A stretch of DNA of 64,000 bases from the NCBI GenBank assembly GCA_002989075.1, contig PSQN01000008.1:404861-468860 (forward strand), written 5' to 3'. Shown here one piece after another: positions 1,453-64,000 of the stretch. Both the position numbers and the translations under genes were made by a program. A model generated the notes under the pieces. The model had not been told where the DNA came from, made no database searches, and saw nothing but the letters and a program-made list of their open reading frames with translations. How positions within the stretch are numbered: the stretch's first letter is position 1; every line of letters begins with the position of its first letter. This DNA comes from Arthonia radiata. Its lineage: Eukaryota; Ascomycota; Arthoniomycetes; Arthoniales; Arthoniaceae.

Positions 1453-1949
1453 GTCGCTGGTGTGCGGTGGGAGCTATTCAGGCAAGTACTGAGCACACGC
1501 GACTGAGCTCACAAGCTTGAAGTAGAAGACTCAAAAGGGGGGATTTGCGATTCCTGATGCGAGGAGGGGAGGAGTGCAAGACCTCAAACAGCAACAAACA
1601 GGGCGCGAGTCCCGATTGGGCGATATCGTGACGAAAGCATGCACAGAAACGGGAGGATGCAGGGAGCAGCCCCTGGTGTGCGGTAGCTGAAGCGCCACGG
1701 CTCGTCCAACAGGAACTGTCTCGAACCCCATCCACACCCACGGCTGGAACATCTCTCACAGGTCCAACACTTGTTTTGCTGCTAAGAATAATGCCATTCG
1801 CTCAGAGTCAGCCTCAGGTCTCATTTGCCACCTTTCCAATGCTGCGCACTTTCATCAAGGCCGGTATTTGTCGTTGCTCATGCTCGTAACTCATTCAATG
1901 CTCCAGCTGTTGCCATGCTGTCCGAAAGATTGTTGATGATCGCGCCCGA
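1453..1949. other. intergenic: upstream of LYAR gene, downstream of deneddylase gene
   Basis: About 500 bp between two minus-strand genes. It should hold the LYAR promoter and the 3' end of the deneddylase transcript. No convincing gene or repeat is seen. Confidence 0.5.
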
Positions 1950-3110: not shown

Positions 3111-3734
3111 ATTGCTGACGCGAATGCTATTGCGGATGCTGATGGAAAGCTACATACTCTATCACCTAGGAATTTGTCCTTGAAGCGGGAGAAGCTCCTC
3201 TGAGAAGACATGAGCTCGCGAGACTATCGTGGGCAGGCGACAGTGCAGAGCGACTGCCTTATGGGAGACGTAATCGACGCGTGGTAATACGCCTAGAAAT
3301 GACGTCTTGGAAGGTGTCACAGGCTGTTCAAGAGTGTATTGAACCAGAAAAGCGCTGCCAAATGACGACTCCTGTGTTTGAGGTCGTTTGTCAAAACGTG
3401 CTTAATCTTGAAAGTCTTAGGGGTGGCGGTTGTATGATGCTACGACCTCGATAAATGGCACGCAAACGAGGTCGAGGAGCGTGATAGATGTGTCAAGCTG
3501 GCCTATCCCGGATTAGTCCAACCGCGGGAGCGAGTGCGAGTCAGTGCCAGCGAATGAGATGATCAACCCTAAACCTTAACACTACTATTCTTCAACTCAT
3601 CTCAGGACTCTATCACGTCTGCCTCGATCACTTCATTGCTTTGACTGAGGAATGTGAGTCGTGGACTCGACAAAAGCATGTCGCGCATCACACAATACTC
3701 TTCTTGATCTATCTGTGCATCTTCGTATGCAAGC
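3111..3734. promoter_or_regulatory. divergent promoter region between DEN1 and ERV2
   Basis: 624 bp shared between two genes pointing away from each other. It contains a telobox-like AACCCTAAA at 3565-3573, about 160 bp before the ERV2 start. No reading frame here looks real. Confidence 0.4.
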
Positions 3735-4391
3735 ATGGCCTCTCATAATGCTCCGAAGCGCTCCACATTCTTCATTTATTTCATCGTCGCTATAGTCTTC
3801 GTCGTCTTCTTCGTTTCTTCGTTTCGCAACCAAGGCTTCGATCTCAAACAAGGGGTCACTAAAACCTCGCGAAATCCCTCATCACACAACCATGGGCTCG
3901 AACAACAACCGCTGGATAGTACCCTTCTTAAAGGGCACGCAATCGCGCCGAAGCTGGGCAACGAAACAGCAAAAGCCGAGCTTGGGCGCGCTGCCTGGAA
4001 GTTGTTCCACACGACCTTCGCACGCTTTCCAGATAAGCCAGCGAAAGAGGAGAGTGCGGCTTTGAAGTCGTACATTCATCTTTTTCAACGGCTATACCCC
4101 TGTGGGGAATGCGCCTCGCATTTCGGTGTGATCCTCGAGAAGTACCCACCGCAAGCTTCCTCCAGATCTGCGGCTGCTGCATGGGGCTGCATGGTGCACA
4201 ATGAGGTGAATAAGAGCTTGAAGAAAGAGCTTTTCGACTGCTCGAAGATCGGTGATTTCTACGATTGCGGATGCGCGGACAACGAGGAAGGGGAAGGCTC
4301 ATTGGACAATTCCGAAGAGAGATCTTACGAGCGCAAAAGTAGTAGCAAGAGCGAAGGAAGCGCTGGCCTGATCCTTGAAGCAGAGGGGTGA
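3735..4391 (+). CDS. ERV2: FAD-linked sulfhydryl oxidase Erv2
   Basis: Single-exon gene, 218 residues. A membrane anchor spans residues about 11-30 (mostly Phe, Ile, Val), followed by a linker and an Erv/ALR domain from about 84. The active-site disulfide is CGEC at 123-126 (YPCGECASHF), and the FAD-binding HNEVN is at 155-159. A C-terminal CGC at 178-180 matches the shuttle cysteine pair known from yeast Erv2. Erv2 makes disulfides in the ER lumen by passing electrons to oxygen via FAD, and recharges protein disulfide isomerase. The anchor plus CGC motif separate it from mitochondrial Erv1. The acidic, Ser-rich tail is not conserved. Converges on the transcription-factor gene with a 93-bp gap. 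Confidence 0.92.
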   Translation: MASHNAPKRSTFFIYFIVAIVFVVFFVSSFRNQGFDLKQGVTKTSRNPSSHNHGLEQQPLDSTLLKGHAIAPKLGNETAKAELGRAAWKLFHTTFARFPDKPAKEESAALKSYIHLFQRLYPCGECASHFGVILEKYPPQASSRSAAAAWGCMVHNEVNKSLKKELFDCSKIGDFYDCGCADNEEGEGSLDNSEERSYERKSSSKSEGSAGLILEAEG

Positions 4392-4484
4392 AGGGTATAT
4401 TCCTCGTATATCACTACAAGCGCATCCATGCTCTACAACGAGTGGCGGCTGCGCTGGACCCAGCTTTACCACCCGCGCAATCCA

Positions 4485-6119
4485 TCATACCCACCAAGCA
4501 CACAGGCACTGCCTCGACCGCCGGTTCTGCGTCGCCAAGTCCGCAAAGTAACTGCCGCCAAACTCGAGCTTCTGGAATGCCGCAACCAAGTCCTCCTCGA
4601 TTTCATCCTCCCCAGGCCTTTCTGCGATATTTCCCTTGCAGCACTCCGACACCTCTTCTCTTGTGTCCCAGAACTTTCTCGCATGAGCGACTCGATTTGG
4701 ATGCCACAGGTACTCTCGCTCCAGCACCTCCATTGCTTCCTCAAAGAGTGGGTGTCCCGCAGCAATGATCGCAACTTGCAATAGCTTCCTGAACCACCCT
4801 TGCAAATTCAACGCGAACGGCCCTGCCAATAAGGCGACCCAGATGACCGCGTATGGTTGCGCTGCTAGCAAAGCTTCAGCATCGTCCTTCGTCAGTCGGC
4901 TCCGCATCTCTAGTATCATTCCGCGAGTAATAGGGCTGGTCAGCAAACTCCCTTGGAACACAATCAAATGCCAGCTCAGCCTCAAGGCCGCATAAAAAAC
5001 CTTGTCCGCATCCGTGAAACCCAGCGAACTAGGGTTGCACATGAGCCACTTGTGCTGCGCCATTGCGCTCCACCAGAACGTGTCGCCTGGCGTCAGCACG
5101 ACCAAAGAAGAATATGTCATGGCCTGACGGAAGTACAACTCCCATGCTTTTGCTGAGATGAAGCCTGTTGTCGCCAGATTCTCGAAGCCGCCCCCACTGA
5201 AGGCAGGGGCCTCCAGTGCGAGTAAAGGCTCGAACGGATATCGCTCCGGCTTCACGTAACTCCACGTCACCTCGGGGTTCTGCTTCCGTGACTGCAGCAG
5301 TGCGCGCAGACCCGTTGTATGCGAAGTAAATGCCGTATCGTCGCGCATGCGCTGTGCAACGAGTACCAGCATCACAATGGCCAAGACGGTGCTATTGGCA
5401 AGCGCACGCTTTGACGCCAGCTCCGTGTTCGTCAGCTTGTACGCTTCGCCGAGCAACCAGTCTCTCATTCCGGCGTTGTCGCTCTCGAAGGGGCTACTGG
5501 CTGTGATCAGAGCCAGCAAGGACGTGTATGCCGCAGGGGATTCGCGAGCCACCGGGAACCAAGTCTGCTTGCGCGCAGCGATGAGCAGAGCGCCGTAGTC
5601 GTCGTCCGGCTTGAACCAGGGGCGACCCTCGACATGGTGGTGACTCAAATAAGTGTAAAGTAGGGCAAAAGCTTCGGGCGAGGTGTGTAACGGGAGTGAG
5701 CTGAAAGGATCATCGTTACGAAAGGGAAGGATCGTGGTAAGCGGTCGGGGTCGAGAGTCAAACGTGAGGGGCTTGTCTGGCTTGGATGGAGTGTTGTCTT
5801 TGGGATGAGTATGATGTGGGTTTGGTGTCTGGTCGTCATCGTGCACGTCGGGCATGCGTTCAACGTTGATTGCGGGCGTTGTAGAAGGCCGGACTGTAGT
5901 GCCAGAGAGAGGTTGTTGGCCAATATCAAGGGTCGCGTTTGGTCTATGTTGGTTCTTCCGGTTCAGCATTGACCATTTCTTGACTAGGTGCTTGTTCTGT
6001 GCCGTTTTACTTTGCGTGACTGGGTTGCCATTCGTAAAAGGCTCGACGAAGACGAGAGACTGGTGCTGTCTTCGATTCGGTCGTTGTTTGGACGCTCTCG
6101 TCGTCCCTTCCGCGGTCAT
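4485..6119 (-). CDS. fungal-specific transcription factor domain protein without zinc cluster
   Basis: One exon, 544 residues, ATG at 6119. Near the N-terminus is a block (about residues 20-60: LVFVEPF then a Lys/Arg/Gln-rich helix) typical of the large fungal family that carries the Fungal_trans_2 (PF11951-type) domain. The rest is helical, with conserved-looking stretches such as SPEAFALLYTYLSHHH, WELYFRQAM and VIWVALLAGPFALNL. No Zn(II)2Cys6 cluster is visible, so either DNA binding uses another partner or this is a cofactor-type member; many family members in dothideomycetes lack the cluster. No target can be named from the sequence. Confidence 0.75.
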   Translation of the reverse strand: MTAEGTTRASKQRPNRRQHQSLVFVEPFTNGNPVTQSKTAQNKHLVKKWSMLNRKNQHRPNATLDIGQQPLSGTTVRPSTTPAINVERMPDVHDDDQTPNPHHTHPKDNTPSKPDKPLTFDSRPRPLTTILPFRNDDPFSSLPLHTSPEAFALLYTYLSHHHVEGRPWFKPDDDYGALLIAARKQTWFPVARESPAAYTSLLALITASSPFESDNAGMRDWLLGEAYKLTNTELASKRALANSTVLAIVMLVLVAQRMRDDTAFTSHTTGLRALLQSRKQNPEVTWSYVKPERYPFEPLLALEAPAFSGGGFENLATTGFISAKAWELYFRQAMTYSSLVVLTPGDTFWWSAMAQHKWLMCNPSSLGFTDADKVFYAALRLSWHLIVFQGSLLTSPITRGMILEMRSRLTKDDAEALLAAQPYAVIWVALLAGPFALNLQGWFRKLLQVAIIAAGHPLFEEAMEVLEREYLWHPNRVAHARKFWDTREEVSECCKGNIAERPGEDEIEEDLVAAFQKLEFGGSYFADLATQNRRSRQCLCAWWV

Positions 6120-6961
6120 CCTGATGTCTCAAAATATACTGGAGGCAGTGTCTCCGCCAATGATTCAATCGTGCCAAAGTCGGAAAAAGCTACTATATAC
6201 GCCGTCTCTTTGATATGTAGTGCACGGCAACCTACGGTTCCCTATAGCAGCCAGTACTTACGGGTCCTCTACCCGCGATGTTTCCGCTTCAGAGCCACTC
6301 GTATTCAGGAGCGCCTTCTCAAAGCTTGAATTCGTGTTGGTCTCCAATCAGCGATTCTTCTCTTTCTCGCACCACTAGCACGCAAGACGGAGGACCAGGA
6401 CAGTGATGGCGATTAGGCTTCCGCGAGGGATGATGTACAATAGTAAGCGCAGCCCTATATTAGCGATTTACAGTAGTGCTGACTGGCGAGGGCGATCCAT
6501 CATCTCGCCGGGTCCGAGCGGCAAATACTGGCGTGGATTCCACGAGGTCAGTGCTTAAATGCTCGAGCGACGACATCCACTTAATGAGGCAATGGAAACA
6601 TTCGCCTCGGTGGCTAATAATCGATCAGGTCGAGCATGGCCGTGGTCGCGGCAAGCGGACCACTTGAGAAAATATCTAAGCATGCAGTACATTATTCGCC
6701 ACACTATTGACAATACGTATACTCCAAGTCCATCACATACCTTTCCGTGCCATTGTTAGAAATGCTAAGTGCGCCGCTCATGAGAGAAAGCTACCGGGTC
6801 CCTCGAAATCTACAGCCTGTACAGATATGCGTTGCACCTTTGCAAAATGGTGAACAACGCGCGGAGAGGGTACTGTCGATGGTACCGCGGAGCCAAGACC
6901 ATATGTAATGTCCTCGATCAGCTGGAGGATTTTCACCGACGACGGGTAGTGAGGCCTCGGC
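6120..6961. other. intergenic, no gene seen
   Basis: 842 bp between the start of the transcription-factor gene and the 3' end of the axis-like gene, both on the minus strand. The short frames here show no family likeness or codon structure. Upstream control of the transcription-factor gene is presumably here. Confidence 0.4.
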
Positions 6962-9900
6962 TCAGTATGCCTGCAAGCCTTTCAGCATCTTGTCGATCGC
7001 TCCAATGCCAGCTCCGAGAGTCTTCTGCGACTTCTCACGTCTGCGCTTGACTTGTTCTGTTGCTCTCTTAGCGACCTCGGCATCCTCAGCAAGCGCCCTT
7101 GTCTGATGCTCTATGCCCCGCTTAAATTTGGCCTTCGCGTGAAGGAGCTGCTTCATGCTGCCGTCTGCTTCTTGAACGTGCTGCTCAGACATGGTGTTGA
7201 GCAATTTCGACGCTCCTTCTGCGTAAGAGCGCACAATAGCTTTGGATGCTGTCTCATGATCCTCAACTTGGGAGAGAAGATGCCGAGAGATCATTGTCAA
7301 AGAGGCCAGCAGACCCCGGTGATGCAAGGGTACCGCTGGCATTTCAGGCTCAGATACTGCTGCGGCGGCGGCGGCGGGCGGAGACGACTCTTTGTGGGAC
7401 GAATCGCTCTGATGATCGGATGAACTGGGTGAGCTCTGTGTGTGCTGAATGTAGCGTTTCTGCAGCTTTTCGGCCTTGGCAGCATCGTCAATGCTGGGGC
7501 TATGTTCGACCAGCGCCGGAAGCTTTTGGTCCTTTCCAGGTTCTTCTATGCGGGAACGCTGGGAGCGACAATTGGGTGGCGGTGCTGCATCAGGAATGAG
7601 GTTTTCGACGAGAGTTTCGTCTTCATCCCAACGCGCGGATTGCTGCTGACTAGACTGCTTTCGATCGACTGCTGCCTTCTTGTGAGGCTCTGAACTGGTA
7701 GCGTTCAATGCTCTAACCTGCTGCACCAGTGGGTTGACCGTCTGAGTGACTAGCGGAAGCCGGGTTTGGGATGAGAACGGGCTGCCTGATTCGTTGACCC
7801 TTCGTGAAAGCTGAGAGCCCGTACCTTTGTTGGGGCTTGGTAAGCGTTGCTGTTGCTCCTGACCTTGAGAAAGCTCGTCTTCCCTAAAGACGTCGTCTGC
7901 AGTGTACTGTTCGTGCGTAGGGGCATCGCTCTGCTTGCCAGTATCAACCGCGGCCGTGTCCCCTTCTGCTTCAGCGCCACGCTCATCAACAAAGGCAGAC
8001 GCTCCCGAACTGCTAGAGTTGTCCTCTGGCGAGTCATCTGGTACGTCGATGGGTAGCCTCTGAGATCCTGCTGGAAGTGACTTGACAGCCTTGTTGGAAT
8101 CAGCCTGCGGTCGATCTGCCTTATCTTTTCTTGGCGTGCTGAATATATTCCTTGCAGACATAGGCTGGGTATTGTGACCTTCGAGCTTGCTGTCGACTTG
8201 CGGGATCGGTGACGTATCTTCAGTGACCAGAATGTGCTCGTCGTCAATGCCGCAATCAGATGGTGATTCAGGCTGCCGCTCGATATCGTTGATGCTTTGC
8301 GTTGGCTGAACATCTGCCTCCTTTCCCACCGCAAGCGCAGGATGTCGTGGCGGTACGGGAGGCAAAGCAAACCCATCTTTGTCGGTTCGGACCGGGTTCG
8401 CTATGGTCATTGATTGTCGCTTCGTCCGCTGCTGAGAGCCTGGCTGGTTGAGAGGCCCATCCGCATCGAACGCGACCAGGTGGGGCTTCTTAGTGACAGA
8501 AGCTTGCACCGCAGAAGGTAATGATTCTGGTGCAGCACCGGCGCCAACAGAATCCGCTGCTGGATTTTGGGACTCTCTCGCCTTCTGTGCATTCTTCCGT
8601 CCCGTTGCGGCTTTTGCCTTAGAAGTCTGACTCTTTTTCGGAGCCCCTCTTGATCCCGGCTGCTTGGTTTTTTTGCCACGTTTGGGCGAGTTTGATGGGA
8701 CATTCCATGTTTCATCAGCTTCGTCCATGGAGAGGAGACTATCAATCTTGCGAGCCTTCTTGTGTGACACCGGCTTCAATTTACCATCTTTCCCTGGTGT
8801 TGATAGCCCATCGTGAGGACGCTTGGACGTACCCCGAGGAGTCTCATTTTCGCCGTCCTCTTCGTCCTCATCTAGGTCCATGCTTGCGTCTTGCCCCGTA
8901 AGTCTGCCACTGGTAGCGAAACGAGGCTTGACTAATTGGAAGTCCGGTAGATGTTTCTGTGCACCTAGCATACTGTCAGTCCCTGCATGAAGTTCTGGGC
9001 GAAGGAAGATATCGTCGAGAGTGTGACGAACTCGGGAAACACTATAAGTAACGACAAGCGCACGAACCTATAACGGTATTGCCAACAGCCTTTGCGTCAC
9101 TAACGCTGCGAAATCCAATGTTCATTATGCTCGACTGCATAGGTTTCGAATCAACGAAGAAGTGTGGTGGTTTCAGGGTGAACTCCAGTGTTGTAATCTT
9201 GGTCTCCATTTGAGCGGGGCTTCCGTGCACATTCGCTTCAACCTGACGTATCGAAGAAATGAATTTCAAAGGAATGTCGACCACTCGGGTTGTCGATGCT
9301 CCGTTGATCAACGTGCAGAAGGAGCCAGATATGGTGAGGAATAGACATCCGTGCTCGAATTTGAAGCCTTTCGATGTCGCATGCAGAGGCCACCAGACAT
9401 CGGAGCTATTGAAAGGAGGTCAATGAAGAAAAGAACATGTCCTGCGCGCAATGAGGTACCTGTGTTGTCTGCCTTTGCTGGTGCAAAAGCCGTTGAACTC
9501 ATGCACCCATTGAGAAGAATCTCGTCGCGGAAACGTTTCAGGCTGCATCAACGATAGTCAGTGCGGCCACCAACGTCAAGCAAAAGCTTGAGGATCTCGC
9601 AAATGGTCTACTTGTGGCTACCGCCGGAGGAGGTGACGAGGAACTGACTGACTTCGAAGCCCGTGCGCTCGTCGATCCAGAATGTCTCTTCCACTGCCCC
9701 AAGAAGGAGCAAGCTCTGCATAAGGCGACCAGCCACGTATTTGATGTCCTCATGTGGCTCTTGCTGAATCAGACCGGCGACCGGTGGGAGCTCGTCGTGT
9801 AAAGATTCGATGATGGTTTCGGCGACTTTTTTACTTCTCTTGAGCAACTCGAAAAGCAAAAGACCGATCTACTGCTATCAGCGTGGTTCCCATTGTCTAT

Positions 9901-49944: not shown

Positions 49945-51670
49945 CTAGATACATTAGAAAATCTTTAGTAGAACTAAGAGCTTATATTATTACCTCTTTA
50001 TTACTAGAAAACATCTTAGTAAGATATTCTAATAGTATTTAAGGCTCTTAAGAAAAAAAGAAAAGTATAATATAGAAAAGAAAGAGAAAATATAAGTAGA
50101 AAAGATAGTATATATATTTAGAAAATTAGAGTTTAAGCTAATAAAATTCAACTTTATAAGTACTATACTATACTATTACTATATTATATTCTACTACTCT
50201 AGTACTATACTATATTCTACTACTCTAGTACTATACTATATTCTACTATTCTAGTACTATACTAAAATAAGATAGAAGTTAGTATATAGAATTAGTAGAA
50301 GAGTTACTAGTAAAATAGTCTTAGAAATAAAAATTATAAAGTAGTATTTAATATAATTAAAACTTAGTAGAATTTATTAAAAGAATCTAATATTTATTCT
50401 ATATACTAGATAAGAACTATAATAATATATTTATATATTCTACTATTATTAAAACTACTATATGTTTTATTATTTAATAATATAAGCTTTATTATCTTTT
50501 AATAGTTCTTTTCTTTAAGAGTCTATTTACTTTTCTACTTAATACTAACTTCTAGTATCTAGATACTAAAATTTTAGCTTTATTTAGTATATAATATTAC
50601 TAATAAGTTAGTAGTTCTATTAGTAAGCTAGTATTTACTTTATAATCTATAGATATAAGCTAAAAGTATAGAGTAAAAGCTAATAATTTATATTAGTTTA
50701 AATTATTTCCTACTATTTTTCTATAAGTACTATAAAATATAGCTCTTAATATATAGTAAAATTTAGAGACTTAGTAGTTTTTATTAGTATTTAATCTTAT
50801 TATCTAGTAGTATTAAAAGTATATACTTAAGAGTAGTTATCTACTAGAGTATATCTACTAGAGTATATCTACTATAAAGACTACTTATATTTTATTAAGA
50901 TAACTATAGCTAAAAAGACCTAGAATAGTATACTAGACTTAAGAATTATATATTTAAAATACTAGATAAGGCTCTATTTATATCTAGTATAATCTAAATA
51001 GTAAGAATTAAGTTTTAGGCTTATAGTAAGATAGTTTCTATATATTACTAAGAATAGTTTTAATTACTTTAAATCTATTTTAAGGAAGTTATATAGAACA
51101 TACTATAAATATATTAAATTATCTAGACTAGACTCTCTAATTCTAGTAAAGATTATATATGATAAGAGATTTTTATTCTTTTTTAACAATTATATTAGTA
51201 TACTAGATAGTATATAAATATCTATAAAAATTCTAGTAGATAAAGCTGTAGCTTTTAGGAATTAATATAGTAGATTATTATAGAATATAGTAGAGATATA
51301 TAATTTTAATAAGAATTTTATCTATATACTAGTAGACTAGAAAGACTCTATATATAATATATATATACTCTAGTATCTATAATAGAAATATAATAATCTT
51401 TTCTATATAGCTAGAGCTAAAATATTCTCTAAAGAGATAATTACTACTAGATAGTCTAGTAGTTCTATATAGTTTTTTCTAGATATAACTATAGATAAAC
51501 TCTATAAATTAAAGAATATTAGTTTATATATAATTTAAATGTATTATTTTTATACTTAGTATAATAGAGTAAGCTAGCTTATATAAGAATAGTTTAAAGT
51601 AGAGATTAGTAGGATTAATAGTAGTAGTATACTATATTAACTAGCTCTAATTAAGATATAATTAAAAGAT
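49945..51670. other. extremely AT-rich, RIP-like block without genes
   Basis: The composition changes abruptly at 49,945. By eye CpA and TpG are almost absent while TpA, CpT and ApG are abundant, the product expected from repeat-induced point mutation. No reading frame of note and no recognisable element; a 26-bp tandem repeat lies inside. Confidence 0.8.
50191..50268. repeat. 26-bp tandem repeat, three copies
   Basis: Copies at 50,191-50,216 and 50,217-50,242 are identical (CTACTACTCTAGTACTATAC then TATATT); the third, 50,243-50,268, has three changes. Confidence 0.85.
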
Positions 51671-52702
51671 ACCTTTATTAGCTCTAGAGTTAGGGTTCTA
51701 TACGGCGCAGAGAGGAATAAAGTAGAGTTATAGTGTTATTTGTACGCTAATTGGTTGTACGCTAGGGCGCCGACTTAGTAGACCCTATTAAATTCTCCTG
51801 CCTCCAAGCAACACACTAAATAGGCCTCTCTAGCAGACATTATTTAAGCTTAAATTAATATAAACAATATTATATACTATACGCAATATATTGCCCGAAT
51901 ATTAGCTCTTAGTACTTATATACAGCTTAAATACAGAGCAAATACTATCTAGTGTGGTACTAGCATACTAAGAGTTATACTCTTATTTAAGCGCTAATTA
52001 GCTAATCTAACCCGCTGTACGCACCGTAATTTGTATATAAGCGATCAACAACAATATAAATTTGTTTAGTAAATAGGCAAAGGACAGGCTTAAGTAGATT
52101 TAATATATTGCTTCTCTTACTAAAGCTTAAATACTAAGCTTAATTAGATAGCTATAGTATAGAAGAAAGACGGTTTAGAGCGCTACTAGTATACTAAGAG
52201 TTACGTTAATATTTAAGTGCTAATTAGCTAGTTAAGCCGGCCGCTTATTTTAAACTTTATTTATAAGCAGGCTTTTTGCTATCCGACAAAAACCTTTAGT
52301 ATCTACTTTTTAATAGGAAGCCTTTCTCTACTATAGTCTCCCTAGCAAGCAAAAATTCTTCTTTAACGCGTACGTCCTTCGCTTCTTCCTTTTTAGTTCT
52401 AAATCGCCTTTTTTCGCTCTATATAGGCCTACTTTTATCCCTACAGCGAGCCCTATAGTCAAACTAAAGAAGTATTTAATCGAAATATAACTATAAGAGC
52501 GCGCTACGTATATAAAGCGACTAACGGCGGAGCGTTAAGTACAATCTTAAGCTTATAAAGCTAATAAAGCCGCCGCGCTAATATTATTAGCGGCGTCTTA
52601 CCTACTACTATTACCTCTCTCTATTGCTAAACTAGCTCCTCGATTAGCGTCTCTAATAGTTGTATCTTTGTCTACGTCTAAGATCGACGCTATCGCTAAA
52701 GT
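51671..52702 (+). repeat. subtelomeric 2.41-kb repeat, proximal copy, left part
   Basis: Matches 60,086-61,117 without net gaps (constant offset 8,415). The left edge carries TTAGGGTT at 51,690-51,697. The copy is cut at 52,702 by the retrotransposon and resumes at 58,702. It is more T/A-shifted than the distal copy. Confidence 0.9.
52698..52702. repeat. target site duplication AAAGT, left
   Basis: AAAGT directly before the left LTR, repeated at 58,702-58,706 directly after the right LTR. The unfilled site in the distal copy has a single AAAGT. Confidence 0.93.
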
Positions 52703-52976
52703 TGTTACGGAACTACCTTAGATCAACCATCTACCGCCTTTAGAAGCTATTAACATACCTACTGCATTGGAAAGACTGTTCTTTGCTACTAATTAATTGC
52801 TAGTTTACCTTCTTCTAGCTTTACCTCTAGTTACCTAGGCAAAAGGTAAAGACTTAGCAAACCGCTCTAACTAACTAAATAGCAGTTCTAGTTTCCTAAA
52901 TAGTTGTTCTGTAGCTTTAGAATTCTATCTATTTCTCTGCAGAGTTAATAAGTTGTTCTTAACATCGCCCGTAACA
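52703..52976 (+). repeat. 5' LTR, 274 bp
   Basis: Begins TGTTACGG and ends CCGTAACA, an 8-bp inverted repeat. Same length as the 3' LTR; the differences I compared are nearly all transitions. No canonical TGG primer-binding site follows; the next bases are TTATTCC. Confidence 0.93.
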
Positions 52977-52999
52977 TTATTCCAAAGCTCTACCCTTTT

Positions 53000-54450
53000 T
53001 ATCTATATATACGCAGCAGACTTTAGTAGTGTTAATACTTACTAAAGACTGTTATACTACACTTAATAAACCCATCGAACTATTTAAGCATCCTTTAGTA
53101 AGACACAACTAATAAACGCCGAGCGAGGTAGTTAGTAAGAACCGAACCAAATTAAACCGACTTTATAGAATAGATCCCGCTATAGTAAAAAGTATTATTA
53201 ACCCTATCTAAGCACAAAGCTTTAATAATTATATACCTACTATACGAGATAGCACCCTAAGAATTGTTACTAAACCGTTTAGTTAGTAATAATAACACTA
53301 ATACGCAATTCTATAGAGATATTAGAAGCTACGCGACAGACGATAATATAATTAACCTAATAATAACCCGGCCGGAGAACTTCTCTATATTTTGGATAGA
53401 ATTTTACGCCAAATATACCGATACTCAAGCTCAATTACGTAAGCTCTAGACTAAAGAGAACGAGCGCCGAAATCGTCGTTAGAATGTTAATTTCTAAACA
53501 ATTAGAGAGAGTCGTAAAGAGACTACTAAGGAGACGCCTGCGTTGGGCTAGATTAGCAATAAAGAGAAATTTAAGAAGGTGTCCGACCCTCCTATTTTCG
53601 CTGGTAAGGCCTTATAAGAGCTTAAGTTATAGATACGTTATATAAAGAATAAAATGTATATTAACGCTAATCGCTACCCGTTAAACGAAGTTAAAGTAGC
53701 TTATATTCTATTACGCCTAGATAAAACCGCCGCTTAGTACGTAGAACCTTACTTAAACTGAGCCAAAGAGACTATACTAGAGGACCTCTACTAGGCGTTA
53801 GAGAACCGGTACAGAGATCTATTTTAAGAAGAAACTGCTTGCGAGAGCTACTACAATCTATACTAAGAACAGAAGAAATTATTTAAGTTCTTCGCTTAGT
53901 TCTATAAATACGCGATTGAAGCTAATATCAATAAACTAACTTAGCTGTATAACTTATAAAATAAGATTAATATTCCTCTTAAAGAAGCTACGCTGCTATA
54001 CAAGCTTAGAACTGTCGCTAGTTATATTAAGAAACTCTAATTCGCCGACCAAAACATTTAGCAGATTAATAAGGCAAAGTCTCGAGTAAACGTAGTTAAG
54101 AAGAATAACTCTCGACCGAATCAATCTCTATAGTCGTAAACAAACTTAGCTCTAGCAGGAACTAAAACTCCTACCGCTGCCGTTAAGCTTCTAATTGCCT
54201 TAGTAGTACGTTAATCGACTTTAAGCACGAACCCTTTTTAAACGAAACGTAGAAGACATTACTTGCTATAAGTATTAGAAGAAGGGCTATTACCGAAGGA
54301 ACTATCCTCTTAAGAAGACTCTAGCGCTAAAATAGAGAAACGCGTAGTCCTCTATAAAGTCTAGTTAGAGCGGCTAGCATTAGGCAGCAGTTAGACTTTA
54401 GAGAAGTTTAATAAACTCTACTCTCTATCTTTAGAGCTAATCGGCATCAA
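53000..54450 (+). pseudogene. degenerate gag region with mutated zinc knuckle
   Basis: Short open stretches remain (for example 53,264-53,449). At 54,264-54,305 the spacing of a CCHC zinc knuckle (C-x2-C-x4-H-x4-C) is kept, but three of the four ligands are now Tyr and a TAG sits within it. Cys to Tyr (TGY to TAY) and His to Tyr (CAY to TAY) are the changes RIP produces. Confidence 0.7.
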
Positions 54451-54479
54451 AAATAATATAAAGATATAGAACAACCCGT

Positions 54480-57400
54480 TTATCTAGATACAGCTATTAA
54501 TAGCTAGCAACTAAAACTAAACTCTGCTTAAGTTCTTAGCGATAATAGATATAGGTTGCTAGATCGCTGTTACTATAGATTACCGCTTTACAGAGAAGAT
54601 TTGCTAAACGTTTAAGATTAGCTTAGTAAAGCTAAATAAATTAATTACTACCCGAGGATTTAAAGAACAGCCGGGAAAGACTATTAAAAAGGGACTATTT
54701 GTACCGGTACAGGTACAAGACTACTAAGTCCCGTATACGTTGTTCTACGTTATCTAACTAAGAACATAAAAGATCTTATTAGAGAAACGCTGATTAGAAA
54801 CGTACTCCGTGTCGATAGACTATAAGAAAGAACTACTAAAATTTAAAAACAATTGTAAGTACGAGTAGAAGCTGGTTTAGAATTAGTTAACGATACCTGA
54901 ATCTCTATTTAACTTAAGACTAGCTCAAATCGATCCGAATCTGTCTCGAAACGGCCGAATTATAGAAGATAAGCGGCCCTTATTTTTAGTGAAGGTAACA
55001 ATACTAAAGAGACCCGAGGCTAATTAGTAGGTCCAATCTTAAATACCGATTAGCTCCGCTAGAACAAGCTTAATTAATTAAGAACAAGGAGCGTTGGTTG
55101 CCGCGAGAGGTGCTTAAAAGGCCTCTTTTAAGAAAGAGATATACAAGGAATCTAAGCCGCGACTCAAAAAGCGACAGAATACCTCTATACTCGGAAGCCT
55201 CTAATAGATTAACTTTATAGGTACAGCTCTATTTCGATACCTAGCAAAGTAGAAGAACGCCAAAGTATTTTCTGTAACTATAAAGAACATTAAATTCTAT
55301 TGGGAAAAAGACTAAAAAACGATTAATCTAAAATTAAAGCTATCTAAAGAGTTCTGGAAGTTTTTAAATGTGTTTAATAAGGACGGCGCGGACAAGCTAT
55401 TACCTTATCGACTACAAGACCTAAAGATAAAGCTAAAGTCTAGCTCTAAATTACCTTACCGAGAACCCTTAAGGAGGATATTAACGGAAGAGGCTAGTCT
55501 TATTAAAGACTATATATAGTTAAACCTCGCTAAATAGTATATCTCGCCCAGCAACTTTTATTACAGCTCTTCGATCCTGTTTGTTCGTAAACTAGGAGAT
55601 AAACTTTATTTGTATGTTAATTATCAGAAACTAAACGTAGTTACTTAGAGAGACTCTTATCCGCTTTCGTTAATCGAGAAAACTCTGGTAAGGGTTACTA
55701 AAGTATAGTAGTTCTCGAAGCTTAATATCTATTAGGCCTTTTACTGGCTAAGAATAGCTTTAGAAGAAGATTTGAACCTTACGACTTTCGCTATCTGCCT
55801 TAAAAACTATAAGTACAACGTAGTTCCGTTTGACCTGTATAATGCCCCTTCGGCCTTCTAACAATTTATAAACGATTTCTTTTTAGATATACTTAACAAG
55901 TACGTATCGATTTATTTAGACAATATACTTATCTTTAGTAAGTTAAAGAAGAAACACAAGAAATATATTCGATAGGTCTTATTACAGCTAAGGTTAATCG
56001 GCCTATACGCGGACATTAAGAAGTACGAGTTCTATAAGCAAGAGATTAAGTATTTAGGCCTAGTCATTACGTTAATTAAAACTAAAATAGACCTTAAAAA
56101 GGTTCAAGCGATTAAAGACTAGGAGAGACCTCGGCAAGGTAATATTACTGCCGTACGGCGGTTTCTAGAGTTTTATAACTACTATCGACAATTTATTCAG
56201 AACTTTAGTAAAATAGCTTGCCCGCTAAATAGCCTAACGAAGAAGAATAGCGGACCGTAGGACAATAGCTACAATAGAGCCTTTAAGTATCTTAAAGAAG
56301 AAGTTAGCAAGAAACTAGTTATAATGTACTTTCGTCTAAATAAGCAATTATTTATAGAATATAATTCTTTAGATTCGGTAGCGGTAGATATTTTATTGTA
56401 ACTTAATAATAATAGTTAACTAAGACTAGTAGCCTACTAGTTCTTAAGCCTCAACCTACAGAGCTAAACTATGCTATCTATAATAAAGAATTATTAGTAA
56501 TCGTTAAGTCCTTTAAAATATTCTAACCGGAGCTATAGTCTGTACCTACTAATAAGCTAACTTAAATTCTTACCGATTACTAGGTATTAAAGTACTTTAT
56601 ATTAACTAAGCAACTAACCTAACAATAAGCCCGATAGACTAAGTTCCTCTTAATATTTAATTTCGAAATTACGTACCGTAGAGGGACAGCGAACAGAAAG
56701 GCAGACGCTTTAATAAAAAGAGCCTCGGGCCTAAGAGCAAAAGAAGATTCTAATATATTTTAAACGTTGTTGCCTGCTAGTAAACTATCTATAGAGGTTC
56801 GAGAAGACTATTAAGTGTATCTAATCGATATAGAAGACGAGACCAAACCTCTAGCGGTACTTAAAGAATTAATAAAAGAAGCGAATACTAAAGATAAAGC
56901 TTTTAGTCGTATCTATAAAGCTCTAGCTAAATATAAAGAAGACAATCTAATCGATAGAAACGTTGAAGGCTATTATCTATTACTATGCTTAAATGTTAAT
57001 AGACTACTATTAATATAAGAACGCTTAGTAGTGTTTAGTTTCTACGTTACTGAAGTAATTAATAAGATACATTCTTTAATAGAAATAGAACACCTAGAAG
57101 TTAGAAACACAATTCGTTAGCTCGCTAGATACTACTAGTTTCCCTAACTATTAAGAAAGATAAAGTAGTTTGTCGACAATTGCTATATTTGTGGGAGAGC
57201 TAAGCTAAGGAACGAGAAGCTAGTAGAGCTCCTTTAACCGTTGCTAACCTTCAAGAGGCCTAACTTAGACTATATTATAGATTTTATTACCGACCTACTA
57301 AAGTCTGAACTAAATAAAGATAATACTATCTTAATGCTAGTTAACAGATTAGCGAAGCTAAAAATATTTCTTTTCTGTAAGTTTAGACTTAGCGAAACGG

Positions 57401-58350
57401 ATACCGAATCGATAGCGAACCTAATTTACTAAAATATATAGTATAAACAAGAACTCCCGAGGTCCCTAACGTCTGACTAGGATCTATAGTTTGCTAGCAT
57501 AGTTTAAAGATACTTAATAAAGCGCTTAAAAGTAAATACTAAACTTATAACCGCTTACTACCTCTAGATTGATAGCTAATCCGAGATCTCTTATCGAGGT
57601 ATAGAGATGCATCTAAGAATATTTATAAATTACTATTAAGACGACTAGTACGACAAGCTTCCTACAGCTAAGTTTGTAGCAAATACTACGGTGTCTAAAA
57701 TAACTAAAATGTTACTATTTAGTATAATCTATAGATACGAACCCCAAATAAGCTTCAAACCTATAATAGAACCCGTTAATTAAAACTAAACTACCTATAA
57801 GAGGGTTTAATCGGACAAAGTAGAGGCTGTAAGCAACCGTTTCTAGGAATTATAGAAAGAAGGGAAATTAAATATAGAATAAGCTTAACTTAAGATAACG
57901 GAGTAGGCCAATAAACAGAGGTCTGATACAACCTTTAAAGTTAGAGACAAAGTATAGCTATTAACTAAGAACATTTAAACGGAGCGACTATCAAAAAAGC
58001 TAAATTACAAGTATATCGGACTATACGTAATTACGTACCGCCAAAGAAATACCTATATACTAGACCTTCTAGATTCAATAGAAATCTATAAAACATTTAA
58101 TTTCTCGATGTTATTAAGAAACCTTAACAAGCCTTTAAAAGGCTAGAAGTACCTCGACCTAGAGCCTATCGTAATTAACAATAACAACAAATAGGTCGTT
58201 AAAGACATTATTAACGTACAGAAAAGTTAAAAACGAATCTAAACCCGCGTAAAATAGTACAGCTACGACGAAGACCGAAAATAGTACCCGATTAAAGACT
58301 TTAAACAAGCTTAAGATCTACTAAAGAGCTTCTACGAGAAATATCTAAGC
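54480..58350 (+). pseudogene. degenerate pol region: protease, reverse transcriptase, RNase H, integrase, chromodomain-like end
   Basis: Protease-like IIDIGC lies near 54,545-54,560. The reverse transcriptase is clearest at 55,440-56,120, with LYVNYQKLNVVT, SYPLSLIEK, FSKLNIYQAF and YLDNILIFSK at about 55,908-55,935 (the usual YxDD is YLDN). RNase H-like sequence follows to about 56,800. The integrase zinc site is suggested near 57,060-57,200 (H...H...CYIC), with the core after it. The last part, about 58,195-58,345, reads like a chromodomain. Many in-frame TAA/TAG stops interrupt all of it. Residual open stretches are 56,815-57,018 and 57,241-57,432. Confidence 0.75.
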
Positions 58351-58412
58351 AAGCTAAGACTTAGGTAGTTAAAACCCTCTGTTATCTCGCTGAGTAAGAG
58401 CAACTAGCTTCT

Positions 58413-58427
58413 TGAAGGGAGAGATAG
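58413..58427 (+). other. polypurine tract of the retrotransposon
   Basis: GAAGGGAGAGATAG lies immediately before the right LTR, the expected plus-strand priming site. Confidence 0.7.
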
Positions 58428-58701
58428 TGTTACGGAACTGCCTTAGATTAACTAACTACCGCCTTTGAAAGCTGTTAATACGCCTACCGTATTAGAAAGA
58501 CTGTTCTTTGCTACCAATTAATTGCTAGTTTACCTTCTCCTAGCTTTACCTCTAGTTGCCTAGACAAAAGGTAAAGACTTAGCAAACTGCTCTAACTAAC
58601 TAAATAGTAGTTCTAGTTTTCTAGATAGTTGTTCTATAGCTTTAGAATTCTATCTGTTTCTCTGTATAGTTAATAAGTTATTCTTAACATCGCCCGTAAC
58701 A
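58428..58701 (+). repeat. 3' LTR, 274 bp
   Basis: Same ends and length as the left LTR (TGTTACGG...CCGTAACA), followed at once by AAAGT. Confidence 0.93.
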
Positions 58702-60084
58702 AAAGTACTTAATTATTAGCTATAAATCTTACTATCAGCTCTTAGCAAGTATTGCCCTTAGCTTACGGATATACAATAAAAGAGATTAGAAAAACAACAG
58801 GTTAGAGCTTTAAGCGCCTATAATAAATATAACAGTAATAGCAAAGCTCTTTAGTTTAATAATACTTTTATCTTTACTACTTTTACTAGGCTACTATTAG
58901 TTTTACTTACTTCTTTTTTAACGTACAATAAACTATCTTCTCTATAGACTAGCTCTAAATAAAATAATTGCTTACGCTCTATAATATACTCGCATACAAT
59001 ATCCTCTCTTATAACATTATAGCGATAGTAAGCGTCTATCTTAACTCTTCTTTATTAAATAGTGTTAAATAACAAACAAACTATTTAAGGCTCTTTAAAC
59101 AGCTATAACAGTCTTACTTTTTTAACTTATACTAGTACCTTTAATAGCTCTTAAAGCGATATATAAAGTCTATAGTCTTTAGCTTATAATTAGTCTTAAC
59201 TATCTTAACTATATAAGTATGCTCTATTATCTTTAACATATAGACAACCTGCCTTAGAGTTAGAATATAAGTAGTCTAAATTATATTTATAGCTCTAGTC
59301 TTTTACTTTAAGCTAAGCCTTCGGTAGTATCTTTACGTCTTCTTATTATTTATCTATACTATCCTCTCTAGCAGTAGTTAGCGACTATAGCATTCTATTC
59401 GCCTAGTCGAGAGTTAATAATATGCTATAACTAGAGCAGTTATATTAAGTCTAGCAACAGCTTTAGCGCAACTTTCGCCTCTTTAGCTACGATTATAAGT
59501 CTATAGCACTAGATACGAACAAGCCGCTACTTAATATATATTGTGTAATTAACTTTTTTAACCGTACTATAGCTAGCTTTTAGCCGTTCTTCTCTAAAAT
59601 TTAAGACTTAGACGCTCTACCGACTATTATACTCGATAGCACTAATTAGCAAGCTATGCTTATAGCAGTAAGCGACTATATACGCAGAAATCTGTTATTT
59701 ATAGACTTATAACCTTTACAACTATATTAAGTATAGCGATTATAGAACATCAATTATATTATTCTAACGCTTCGCTCTTTTGCTATATATTGAGCTAGTA
59801 TTAATATTTACTACTATCTACGCTTTAGTAAGACTATAACTAATAATTAGTATATATACCTCTACGGCGGCCGCGTAGATATTTAAAAGTTTAAGCACGT
59901 CTATACTTTTCGAGGCTATAGGAGCTTATAATTCAATATAATCGCTATTTTTTTAAATCTAAAACTATCTAAGAATATATACTATTCTATTGATAAAGAG
60001 TACTAGCTTTAGGTTAATAGTATTCTACTATATACGCTCCGATCTATACTCGCAGACTAATACTCCTACCTACTGTAGCACTAT
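58702..60084 (+). repeat. subtelomeric 2.41-kb repeat, proximal copy, right part
   Basis: Starts with the right AAAGT target duplicate (58,702-58,706) and continues the copy that broke off at 52,702. Matches 61,113-62,495 with constant offset 2,411. Ends with CACTAT at 60,079-60,084, where the distal copy begins. Confidence 0.9.
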
Positions 60085-60085
60085 T

Positions 60086-62495
60086 ACCTCTACTAGCTCT
60101 AGAGTTAGGGTTCTATACCTCGTAGAGAGGAATAAAGCGGAGTTATAGTGTTATTTGTACGCTAATTGGTCGTACGCTAGAGCGCCGGCTTAATAGACCC
60201 TATTAAATTCTCCTGTCTCTAAGCAACACACTAGATAGGCCTCCCTAGCAGACGTTATCTAAGCTTAAATTAATATAAACAATATTGTATACTATACGCA
60301 ACATATTGCCTGAATATTAGCTCTCGGTACTTATATATGGCTTAAACATAGAGCAAACACTATCTAGTACGGTGCTAGTATGCTAAGAGTTACGCTCTTA
60401 TTTAAGCGCTAATTAGCCAATTCGACCCGTCGTACGCACCGTAATTCGTATATAAGCGACAAACAACAATATAAATTTGTTTAGTAAACAGGCAAAGAGC
60501 GGGCTCGAGTAGATTTAACGTATTACTTCTCTTACTAAAGCTTAAATACTAAGCTTAATTAGATAGCTGTAGTATAGAAGAAAGACGGTTTAGAGCGCTG
60601 CTAGTATGCTAAGAGTTATATTGATATTTAAGTACTAATTAGCTAGTTAAGCCGGCCGCTTATTTTAGGCTTTATTTATAAGTAGGCTTTTTGCCGCCCA
60701 GCAAAAACCTTTAGTATCTGCTTTTTAATAGAAAGCCTTTTTCTACTATAGTCTCGCTAGCGAGCAAAACTTCTTCTTTAATATACGCGTCCTTCGCTTC
60801 TCTCTTTCTAGTTCTAAATCGCCTATTTTCGCTCTATATAGACCTACTTTTACCCCTACGGCGAGCTCTATAGGCAAACTAAAGAAGTATCTAACCGAGA
60901 TATAACTACAAGAGCGCGCTACGTATATAAAGCAACTAGCGGCGGAGCGTTAAGTACGATCTTAAGCCTATAAAGCTAACAAAGCTGCCGCGTTAATACT
61001 ATTAGTAGCGTCTTACCTACTACTATTACCTTCCTCTATTGCTAAACTAGCTCCTCGATTAGCGTCTTCGATAGTCGTACCTTCGCCTGCGTCTAAGGTC
61101 GACGCTATCGCTAAAGTACTTAATTATTAGCTATAGACCTTATTATCGGCTCTCAGCGAGTATCGCCCTTAGCTTACGGGCACACAATAAAAGAGATTAG
61201 AAAAACAACGGGCTAGAGCTTTAAGCGCCTACAATAAATATAATAGTAATAGCGAGGCCCTTTAGTCTAATAATACTTCTATCTCTACCGCTCCTGCTAG
61301 GCTACTATTAGTTTTACCCGCTTTCTTTCTAGCGCACAACAAACTATCTTCTCTATAGACCGGCTCTAAATAAGATAATCGCTTACGCCCTATAATACGC
61401 CCGCGTACAACATTCTTCCTTACAATATTATAGCGACAGCAAGCGTCTACCTTAACTTCTCTTTATTAAACGGTGTTAGATAACAAATAAACTATCTAAG
61501 ACCCTCTAGACAGCTACAACAGCCTTACTCCCTTAACTTATACCGGTGCCTTTAATAGCTCTTAAAGCGATATATAAAGTCTACAGTCTTTAGCTTATAA
61601 TTAGTTATAACTATCTCGACCGTATAAGTATACTCCGTTATCTTTAGAATACGGGCAACCCGCCTTAGAGTTAGACCACAAGCAGTCTAAATTATATTTA
61701 TAGCTCTAGTCTTCTACTTCGAGCTAAGCCTCCGACAGTGTCTTCGCGCCTTCTTATTATTTATCTATACCGTCCTCTTTGGCGGTAGTTAGCGACTATA
61801 GCATTCTATTCGCCTAGTTGGGAGTTAATAATGCGTTATAACTAGAGCAGTCATATTAAGTCTAGTAACAGCTTTAGCGCGACTTTCGCCTCTTTAGCTG
61901 CAATTACGAGTCTACAGCACTAGATGCGAACAAGCCGCTACTCAATATATATCGCGCAATCAACTTTTTCAACCGTACTATAGCTAGCTCTTAGCTGTTC
62001 TTCTCCAAAATTTAGGACTTAGACGCTCTACCGCCTATTATACTCGATAGCACTAATTAGTAAGCTACGCTTATAGCAGCAAGCGACTACGTACGCGGAG
62101 ATCTGTTATTTACAGACTTATAACCTCCGGGATTATATTAGATGCAGTGGTTGTAGGACATCGATTGCATTATTCTAACGCTTCGCTTCCTCGCCGCGTA
62201 TCGAGCTAGTATTAATATCTGCTACTATCTACGCTTTAGTAAGACTATAACCAATAATTAGTATATATACCTCTACGGCGGCCGCATAGATATCCGGAAG
62301 TTTAAGCACGTCCGCACTTTCCGAGGCTATAGGGGCTTATAATTCGATATAATCGCTGTTTTTCTAAACCTAAAACTATCTAAGGACACGTGCTACCCTA
62401 CCAATAAAGAGTACTAGCTTTAGGTTGATAGTGTCCTACTATGTGCGCTCCGATCTATGCTCGCAGGCCAATACTCCTACCTACTGCAGCACTAT
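60086..62495 (+). repeat. subtelomeric 2.41-kb repeat, distal copy, uninterrupted
   Basis: Direct-orientation partner of the split copy, same length of about 2,410 bp. TTAGGGTT lies at 60,105-60,112 near its left edge. The unfilled insertion site (single AAAGT) is at 61,113-61,117. It retains more C and G than the proximal copy. Confidence 0.9.
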
Positions 62496-63827
62496 CCAGT
62501 TAATTTCAACGATACTTACAATAAGTCTCGTCTTACATAGCTTAAACAAGCAAGCAGCGAGAACTAGCATATAACGAAGCTCTTCTACTATCTGCCCTCC
62601 CGCCTTCCCGGCTCTACTCCATAAGCAAACTTTCTTGATCGTTTTATAAGCGCTATCCGCGAGTATACCTCTAGATATAAATAGTTCCGCGATATCTTCT
62701 TTGTTATCGTTACGTACGGCTGTAAGCTTTACTATCGGTCGACCTTCCTTAATGCGATACGCACCTTACTAGTCTAAGAGCTGCATAAGACGTTTAATTT
62801 TGAATATATAAACCTCGACGAGGTCTGGGTCGATTTGGCCTTAGAGAACATTTCGCAAACCCCTCATCTCACATCGGTAGAGGACGCCCTTTGCCTCTTA
62901 TAGCGTACACCTTGTTATAAAGCCAATATAGAAGCGCTAGACTTATTACGCTATACGTAGTAGTTTAATTGGTAGTTAACTCGCGACGCTATATCCGTTA
63001 GAGCCGTCCCTCCCAAGCAATTATCTCTGCGCGCCGGCGGCCTGTACTACGTCTAGAGTTATAATTTAACTAAAGAGCTCTTTATTACTATTAATAGCAA
63101 GAGCCTGTCGTTTAAGGATATACGGCTACGTACCTTAGCATACAGCAAGCAGACTCTGAACGAGATTTAAGCTACGAATCGCTCTTACTACGTTTACCGT
63201 CCCGGATTGCTTTAATCTTTTATAGCAACCGTCCGGCGACTGGCCAGAGTTCTTAGGGCGTCGGTCTTCAAAGCTTAGCACAACATTAGTGTCCGCAAAG
63301 AGTATCGTATTTATTAAAACTTACTGCATACAATAGATATAGCCTAGAAGCAGCCTACGCTAAAGGGTACAGCTTACTACTAGCTCTTTTAGGTTTTGTG
63401 CAGAGCCGATATCTATTTCTTTACGTTCTCGCAGCTTACGCGCTAGCTCGCCTCTATGTGTATACTAATCGCTTCTACTAGCTCCTCGATCTTACTATCT
63501 TGGTACCAGCAAGATATAAACGCCGCGATGTTAACTGTCCTCCTCGACTATATAGAGGTTACCTTGAATAGCGGGTGCATCGTTCTCCGCTCCCAAATCG
63601 CGCTCGCTAACTATACCCGCCGCCGTCCGTCAAACGCTCGCAGTCGTCGCTGTAGCCGTCGCACGCAACCCAACACGGTTAAGCAACCCTTTATAAACAT
63701 ACATATCGTAGTCAAGGACGACCCTAGTAATAGTAAAGTTAATAAAGTCCTACGCCGCGGTCTTAGGCTCCTAGGATATATCGCTCGGCACGGCGTTGGG
63801 TGGTTGCCCCGCAACATGTTCGAATGA
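60783..63827 (+). pseudogene. unrecognised long subtelomeric gene, degenerate, ends 78 bp before the telomere
   Basis: One reading phase holds from about 60,783 to the TGA at 63,825-63,827 (about 1,014 codons) without a frameshift at the points I tested (60,876, 61,113, 62,304, 62,487, 63,456). It is interrupted by many TAA and TAG codons, which fit former CAA and CAG. Protein-like stretches include KRLEKQRARALSAYNKYNSN, ALENISQTPHLTSVEDAL, SVRKEYRIYQNLL and an Arg-rich patch RRRPSNARSRRCSRR. The last 123 codons (63,456-63,827) are free of stops. I see no helicase, reverse transcriptase, transposase or tyrosine-recombinase motif and cannot name it. No start ATG is visible at the left end. The first about 1.7 kb also exists in the proximal repeat copy. 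Confidence 0.6.
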
Positions 63828-63905
63828 ACGACGCTCAACTTCCGCGTCAATATCTTACCCGAGACAGTATTCGTTACCACTGCGTAGCTAAATAGTCTCG
63901 TTTTT
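63828..63905. other. telomere-adjacent spacer
   Basis: 78 bp of mixed sequence between the last frame and the repeats, ending in a short T run that merges into TTAGGG. No feature seen. Confidence 0.6.
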
Positions 63906-64000
63906 TTAGGGTTAGGGTTAGGGTTAGGGTTAGGGTTAGGGTTAGGGTTAGGGTTAGGGTTAGGGTTAGGGTTAGGGTTAGGGTTAGGGTTAGGGTTAGG
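63906..64000 (+). repeat. telomere, (TTAGGG)n
   Basis: Fifteen full perfect TTAGGG units plus TTAGG to the end of the window. The G-rich strand runs 5' to 3' toward the end, so this is the right chromosome terminus. Confidence 0.98.

What the first reader, a model, noticed from the sequence alone, without database searches (positions are those of the whole stretch)
60783..63827. Unrecognised telomere-proximal gene of about 1,000 codons in a single frame
Seen: one phase continues for about 3 kb to within 78 bp of the telomere; the breaks are TAA/TAG stops rather than frameshifts, and the last 123 codons are open. Known: RIP turns CAA/CAG into TAA/TAG. Inference: this is a decayed member of a large subtelomeric gene family whose product I cannot assign; functional copies may exist at other chromosome ends.
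Basis: partly seen in the sequence, partly recalled or inferred. Interest (0 to 1): 0.78.

Follow-up and report, generated by a model that had tools for sequence, protein, structure and literature searches.

The report
RIP-killed chromosome-end element with unknown genes
The odd reading frame beside this fungal telomere is the mutated remains of a real gene inside a repeated element that sits at many chromosome ends, pointing the same way, and whose protein matched nothing in the searches made here.

Summary
The frame is real, but it is part of something larger. Window 60783-63827 lies inside a repeat unit that starts sharply at 60085 and is cut off by the telomere at 63896. Parts of the unit occur at 14 contig ends of this 33.5-Mb ascomycete genome; the longest copy reaches 8.5 kb. 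A search with the unit's first 700 bases gave 23 hits, all within 21 kb of a contig end, 22 of them oriented with the start toward the chromosome interior. Copies differ almost only by transitions, the mark of RIP. Stop counts alone do not beat chance. Pfam shows no family above its cut-off on the unit, while a RIP-mutated Ty3 element in the same window is still recognised. Two protein searches with ORF A found no relative. Fixed proximal end, unrelated flanks, and variable distal ends that meet telomere or the next copy suggest attachment to chromosome ends. The class of element and the function of its proteins are open. No intact copy was found.

The parts
60085..63896 (+). Repeat unit, distal copy (unit positions 1-3812), cut off and capped by the telomere
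   Evidence: Shared start TAYCTYTAYTAGCTCT and homology with copies at other ends; both C10 copies continue past the point where this one stops
60783..63827 (+). ORF A: RIP-broken coding frame (the finding), about 1,014 codons; true ends not established
   Evidence: Codon-usage phase test, best of six frames in two copies, 0 of 200 shuffles; strand margin within the range of host ORFs
60085..60782 (+). Leader of the unit, no coding signal; contains imperfect direct repeats of about 70-115 bp
51670..52702 (+). Proximal copy of the unit, first part (unit about 1-1033)
   Evidence: 89% identical to 60085-61117
58702..60084 (+). Proximal copy, second part, ending at unit 2411 and joined directly to the start of the next copy at 60085
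   Evidence: 85% identical to 61113-62495; junction read directly
52703..58701 (+). RIP-mutated Ty3/Gypsy LTR element that split the proximal copy (274-bp LTRs, 90.5% alike; AAAGT on both sides); natural sensitivity control
   Evidence: RVT_1 5.5e-15, Integrase_H2C2 1.3e-8, RT_RNaseH 4.7e-7
63906..64000 (+). Terminal TTAGGG repeats (15.8 units)

Best explanation
The frame is ORF A of a multi-copy, chromosome-end-specific mobile element. It spread recently, judging by copies that differ almost only by transitions, and was then mutated by RIP in every copy examined. Shown: the unit has one fixed end, joined on the chromosome side to unrelated DNA at each of 13 sites compared, with the same polarity. 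Copies stop at different distal positions and are followed by telomere repeats, another copy, or other repeats. Shown by codon statistics: two coding stretches (unit 699-3740 and 6002-8508), both reading toward the telomere. Inferred: new copies were added to damaged or unprotected chromosome ends by the fixed end; distal parts were lost by incomplete copying or erosion, telomerase re-capped the end, and later additions built head-to-tail arrays. Inferred: ORF A and ORF B are the element's own proteins, for copying or end-attachment. What enzyme they are is not known.
For: 23 hits of the first 700 bases, all within 21 kb of a contig end, 22 with the same polarity. 13 starts read directly begin at the same base; in 78 pairs no flank similarity reaches it, and none of the 13 has a TTAGGG within 200 bp on the chromosome side; three more starts read. 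Eight copies run into TTAGGG, within about 20 bp, at about unit 450, 617, 1468, 1793, 2201, 3392, 3812 and 7354. Three direct head-to-tail joints, at unit 2411, 5341 and 206, with no telomere repeats between. 1,275 of 1,338 variable columns among 3,743 positions are pure transitions. Coding test. RIP base composition.
Against: No transposition enzyme was recognised in six-frame Pfam scans. No complete distal end was seen, so terminal repeats and target duplications could not be tested. The coding strand runs outward from the fixed end, opposite to HeT-A-like attachment (recalled), where the 3' end is fixed. Fixed polarity also occurs in subtelomeric repeats explained by recombination. One hit (C16:4-164) has the opposite polarity relative to its contig end. 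Copies beside other repeats may have been cut by those insertions rather than truncated. Over unit 2699-3740 the C10-left copy does not favour either strand (margin -0.004 to +0.005 per codon).
Confidence: 0.6

Rival explanations
1. A subtelomeric gene block spread among chromosome ends by break-induced copying or ectopic recombination after telomere failure (Y'-like or TLH-region-like), then mutated by RIP; not a transposon in its own right.
For: Subtelomeric location, fixed polarity and RIP-like mutation are described for A. flavus class H AT-rich elements (PMC9910759, section 23 read); truncated subtelomeric tandem copies of a 4-kb repeat, bordered by interstitial telomere repeats, arise in telomere failure in P. 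oryzae (PMC8381367, section 28 read).
Against: In 13 starts compared, flanks differ right up to the same first base, which copying from a shared end does not predict; no telomere repeats lie at the three copy-copy joints.
Confidence: 0.25
2. A decayed telomere-linked RecQ helicase gene (TLH), as found at the ends of many fungal chromosomes.
For: Location, copy number, RIP and ORF length resemble TLH genes (X26 in S. nodorum, PMC3017866; the 3.5-kb RecQ family in M. graminicola, PMC4522978; passages seen).
Against: No helicase domain at E up to 1 in the six-frame scans of the unit nor in ORF A or ORF B of several copies at E up to 10, while in-silico RIP-mutated RecQ proteins of this genome still hit DEAD at 0.002 and 2.9e-7. 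The RecQ model passes its cut-off at two loci only, both over 100 kb from a contig end.
Confidence: 0.05
3. A telomere-targeted retrotransposon (MoTeR/FoTeR type non-LTR, or endonuclease-less Penelope/terminon) whose reverse transcriptase lies in the part missing from every copy.
For: Terminal arrays, fixed polarity and truncation match these elements (PMC12857005, PMC6431247, PMC4522978; passages seen).
Against: No reverse transcriptase found on either strand of the 8.5 kb known; no hammerhead ribozyme or other Rfam family; no TTAGGG within 200 bp of the proximal joint in 13 of 13 starts; the two coding stretches start from the fixed end.
Confidence: 0.15
4. Chance: the low-stop frame is an accident of RIP composition and the repeat is noncoding.
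For: Stop counts are within reach of shuffles (35 of 400).
Against: Codon-usage phase test, 0 of 200 shuffles in each of two copies.
Confidence: 0.06

Closest known systems
A. flavus class H (and A, F, G, I, J) subtelomeric AT-rich repeats (PMC9910759; abstract and section 23 read)
   Same: Subtelomeric, constant polarity, no recognisable transposon homologue; RIP-like mutation reported for class H
   Different: There explained by recombination of a progenitor repeat; here a fixed start on unrelated flanks, copies joined directly to each other or to telomere, and two coding stretches
Terminons / endonuclease-deficient Penelope-like elements (PMC6431247; passages seen)
   Same: Attached at chromosome ends, truncated by telomere repeats, head-to-tail arrays, unusual extra ORFs
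   Different: No reverse transcriptase, hammerhead motif or telomere repeats at the fixed end detected here; the coding stretches run away from the fixed end
MoTeR / FoTeR telomeric non-LTR retrotransposons (PMC12857005; passages seen)
   Same: Chromosome-end location in fungi, truncated copies, RIP
   Different: Those encode reverse transcriptase and are inserted in telomere repeats
Telomere-linked RecQ helicase genes (PMC3017866, PMC4522978; passages seen)
   Same: Subtelomeric multi-copy ORF of about 1,000 codons or more; RIP-mutated in S. nodorum
   Different: No helicase domain detected here
Drosophila HeT-A (recalled; only a search listing was seen)
   Same: Head-to-tail arrays of variably truncated copies attached at chromosome ends
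   Different: TTAGGG repeats are present here; the fixed end is the 5' side of the coding strand, not the 3' side

Membership tests
Telomere-linked RecQ helicase (TLH) | RecQ/DEAD helicase domain in the ORF | tested here: not met
   Six-frame Pfam scans without it; damaged controls detected. A domain beyond unit 8508 could not be tested
Telomere-linked RecQ helicase (TLH) | Multi-copy at chromosome ends | tested here: met
MoTeR/FoTeR non-LTR retrotransposon | Reverse transcriptase | tested here: inconclusive
   Not found in the 8.5 kb known on both strands; the missing distal part was not testable
MoTeR/FoTeR non-LTR retrotransposon | Inserted in telomere repeats | tested here: not met
   No TTAGGG within 200 bp on the chromosome side of 13 of 13 starts
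Endonuclease-less Penelope element / terminon | Hammerhead ribozyme motif near the fixed end | tested here: inconclusive
   No Rfam match, but RIP may have destroyed it
Endonuclease-less Penelope element / terminon | Fixed end is the 3' end of the coding strand | tested here: inconclusive
   ORF A and ORF B start from the fixed end; a reverse transcriptase ORF was not seen, so its direction is unknown
Polarity-locked subtelomeric RIP-mutated repeat (A. flavus type) | Subtelomeric only, constant polarity, transition-dominated divergence | tested here: met
   23 of 23 hits subtelomeric, 22 of 23 same polarity; 1,275 of 1,338 variable columns
Element with a known Pfam transposase, integrase or polymerase | A recognised domain above its cut-off | tested here: not met
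   only sub-threshold hits

The most novel reading that the evidence does not exclude
A new kind of chromosome-end mobile element that attaches itself to broken ends by the 5' side of its coding strand. It carries two large proteins unrelated to any known family, one of which (ORF A) acts in copying or joining, so that the host's telomerase only has to cap the result.
Probability: 0.2. Interest if true: 0.82.

Novelty: new variant of a known kind. Interest (0 to 1): 0.55.

Why it matters
Fungal chromosome ends are colonised by few known element types. A family that is confined to ends, locked in one direction, joined to unrelated flanks and without a recognised enzyme suggests another way of adding DNA to chromosome ends in an organism that has TTAGGG telomeres. 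It also shows that RIP-mutated ends can hide protein families that annotation misses, and that a codon-phase test can recover the frame without altering the sequence.

Tried and rejected
Known enzymes. Pfam six-frame scans covered unit 1-3821 in the window copy, about 3311-8510 in C10-left and 4192-7354 in C15-left, all at E up to 1; ORF A in several copies and ORF B were also scanned at E up to 10. Nothing passed a family's cut-off. The strongest sub-threshold hit is DUF3335 (peptidase C39-like) on the antisense strand at about unit 5975-6200: E 0.0031 in C10-left and 0.2 in C15-left, the two copies that cover the place. These are homologous copies, so the hits are not independent, but the E-value is of the order of the weaker damaged-RecQ control (0.002), so it is left open rather than dismissed. 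Others, each in one sequence only: Orbi_NS3 0.0064, KRIT1_FRMD8 0.024, SF3A2 0.036, ACT_AHAS 0.073, PsbU about 0.08 (same window sequence), DUF1774 0.16, DUF7323 0.25, Equine_IAV_S2 0.28, DGF-1 0.42.

Solved structures: none for A1 or A2; seven weak partial hits for ORF B, best E 0.4. Structure model of the C-terminal half of ORF A: mean pLDDT 32.8, meaningless, so no fold search was made. Viral contigs: none for the C-terminal half of ORF A or for ORF B. Plasmids, near-identity DNA search: none. RNA families: none. RecQ proteins of this genome against the retrieved ends: one chance-level hit outside the unit (E 2.8).

The idea that the TTAGGG-like motif about 20 bp into the unit is a telomere seed was dropped: copies vary there and one copy (C13R) reads GTCAGGG, so it is probably a product of RIP. 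The argument that absence of TGA proves the frame was dropped, because variable C sites include many CpG and other frames have few TGA too. Transversions by codon position are too few to decide.

Limits. The protein searches used only residues 400-1014 of ORF A, considered only proteins of 0.55 to 1.75 times the query's length, and scored only candidates sharing exact five-residue words; remote relatives are not excluded. ORF B and the first 400 residues of ORF A were not searched there. The third search was a control with a window gene: 967 proteins, the named ones among the 120 listed being mostly lichen fungi. The RIP simulation assumes CpA preference, while the still-variable sites are mixed in context (CpG 503, CpT 410, CpA 327, CpC 243). 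The training ORFs are long window ORFs presumed to be genes.

Full report
Setting. The window is G000:C8:404861-468860 of a 33.5-Mb genome in 16 contigs with TTAGGG telomeres. A window gene with a DUF7703 domain finds 967 relatives; of the 120 listed, those that carry names are mostly lichen fungi, so the host is probably a lichen-forming or related ascomycete. The species was not established. GC drops from about 0.53 to 0.19-0.47 beyond 50 kb, with TpA excess and CpA/TpG loss, the composition of RIP.

The frame. Stop scarcity alone is not convincing: 35 of 400 shuffles do as well, and 9 of 400 have as long an open run. Codon usage is convincing. Fifteen long window ORFs were RIP-mutated in silico and used to train a six-frame score; the right frame was recovered on held-out 900-bp pieces in 14, 15 and 13 of 15 at mild, middle and strong RIP. 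The C10-left copy gives +14.8 in the corresponding frame, 0 of 200. The score is weak in the first 900 bp (+0.8; 14 of 200 shuffles reach it). In unit 2499-3398 the antisense frame is slightly higher (7.5 against 4.6). Over the whole frame the sense-over-antisense margin is 0.046-0.058 per codon, within the range of host ORFs (medians 0.026-0.048; 4 to 7 of 75 simulated host cases are negative), but C10-left 2699-3740 is neutral. A RIP-mutated Ty3 reverse transcriptase in this window, whose frame is known from Pfam, is placed correctly.

The unit. A DNA search with the region found 15 places in the genome. A search with 60085-60784 found 23, lower bounds by the tool's note, all within 20,985 bases of a contig end; 11 on left ends are all minus, 11 on right ends all plus, and the exception is C16:4-164, at a contig end where no telomere repeat was found. 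The contig ends involved are C1L, C2L, C5L, C5R, C8R, C9R, C10L, C10R, C12L, C13L, C13R, C14R, C15L and C16L. The 13 starts read, and three more, begin at the same base. In 78 pairs of 600-bp flanks, six show some similarity and none reaches this base; several flanks lie in other repeats. No flank has a TTAGGG within 200 bp (0 of 13). In the window a second copy lies proximally at 51670-52702 and 58702-60084, split by a Ty3 element, and runs at unit 2411 directly into the start of the distal copy at 60085. Two more direct copy-copy joints are on C10R (unit 5341 to 1) and C2L (206 to 1). Eight copies end within about 20 bp of telomere repeats at eight different positions. On C13R the joint shows CTTTAG repeats before TTAGGG, as expected of new telomere addition (interpretation inferred). 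The C10-left copy reaches unit 8508, where another, LTR-like repeat begins; the C15-left copy covers 2113-2303 and 4192-7354. No copy examined shows a complete distal end.

Second coding stretch. In C10-left, unit 6002-8508 scores +41.0 in one plus-strand frame, next best +9.3, 0 of 200 shuffles. In 3741-6000 no frame scores above zero; the best is antisense at -5.2, reached by 6 of 200 shuffles, and one 900-bp window there (3601-4500) is weakly positive on the antisense strand. Both main stretches read toward the telomere. At the place of the stop at 63825 the two C10 copies carry a different stop codon, and the coding signal fades soon after.

Age and decay. In 3,743 aligned positions of ten copies (not all present at every position), 1,275 columns are pure transitions and 63 involve other changes (sums made here). 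The copies were therefore nearly identical when RIP struck. All seven translated matches to the less damaged half contain 12 to 34 stops, so no intact copy was found in this assembly. Some other copies also carry frame-shifting deletions.

What it is not. Pfam shows no family above its cut-off on the unit: 1-3821 from the window copy, about 3311-8510 from C10-left and 4192-7354 from C15-left, both strands. The strongest sub-threshold hit is an antisense DUF3335 match near unit 6000-6200 (0.0031 and 0.2 in the two copies covering it). At similar or stronger damage Pfam still recognises the Ty3 element (5.5e-15) and two simulated RIP-mutated RecQ proteins (DEAD 0.002, itself under the cut-off, and 2.9e-7). 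Domains of ordinary conservation should thus mostly have been seen, though a fast-evolving one could be missed. The RecQ model passes its cut-off at two loci only, both over 100 kb from a contig end. Two protein searches with ORF A found nothing: the first scored 7,992 candidates at E 0.001, the second 922 at E 10. Viral contigs gave nothing.

Mechanism. A fixed end on unrelated DNA, locked polarity, variable distal ends and direct copy-copy joints are what repeated attachment to chromosome ends would leave. Ordinary insertion followed by terminal loss would need an orientation bias to explain the polarity, and would be expected to leave some complete internal copies; none was seen. Copying from other subtelomeres would carry flanks along. 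This makes end-attachment the leading reading, without direct proof, and the enzyme is unknown. Known end-attaching retroelements fix their 3' end (terminons; HeT-A recalled); here the coding strand begins at the fixed end. That is either a real difference or a sign that the ORFs are passengers.

Literature. Nearest descriptions are A. flavus subtelomeric AT-rich repeats (PMC9910759, abstract and section 23 read), telomere-failure repeats in P. oryzae (PMC8381367, passages and section 28 read), FoTeRs (PMC12857005, passages), terminons (PMC6431247, passages), subtelomeric repeats of M. graminicola (PMC4522978, passages) and RIP-mutated RecQ repeats of S. nodorum (PMC3017866, passages). In the capped listings of the six paper searches no title or abstract start shown describes this family; most subscription papers are not in that library.

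Noticed in passing
52703-58701: RIP-mutated Ty3/Gypsy LTR element (274-bp LTRs, RVT_1, RNase H, integrase zinc-binding, Tf2-type SH3) inside the proximal unit copy; a useful real-world control for detecting RIP-mutated domains.
   Followed up: yes
L013:2723-3229, L013:7753-8255, L015:5797-6304, L014 from 4700: A repeat of about 505 bp (starting near TTGTTGGAAATTAACC) sits inside or beside several unit copies; perhaps a solo LTR.
   Followed up: partly
L009 (from C10:6001 downward), L013:8702, L019:924 and 9674: A second chromosome-end repeat starting near TGTAACGCCGG, with a repeated stretch of about 291 bp, LTR-like; it cuts the longest unit copy.
   Followed up: partly
L016:8819-8838: CTTTAG repeats between the truncated unit and the TTAGGG array at C13R, resembling a mis-templated start of new telomere addition.
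   Followed up: no
L009 about C10:8310-8535 and L021 about 1299-1478, antisense to the unit: Weak sub-threshold match to DUF3335 (peptidase C39-like) in both copies that cover this place.
   Followed up: no
50000-51669: Stretch with GC about 0.19-0.24, several short tandem arrays and no coding signal, between the genes and the subtelomeric repeats.
   Followed up: partly
C16 left contig end (L019): Unit fragment in the opposite direction at a contig end without telomere repeats; may be an assembly break.
   Followed up: partly
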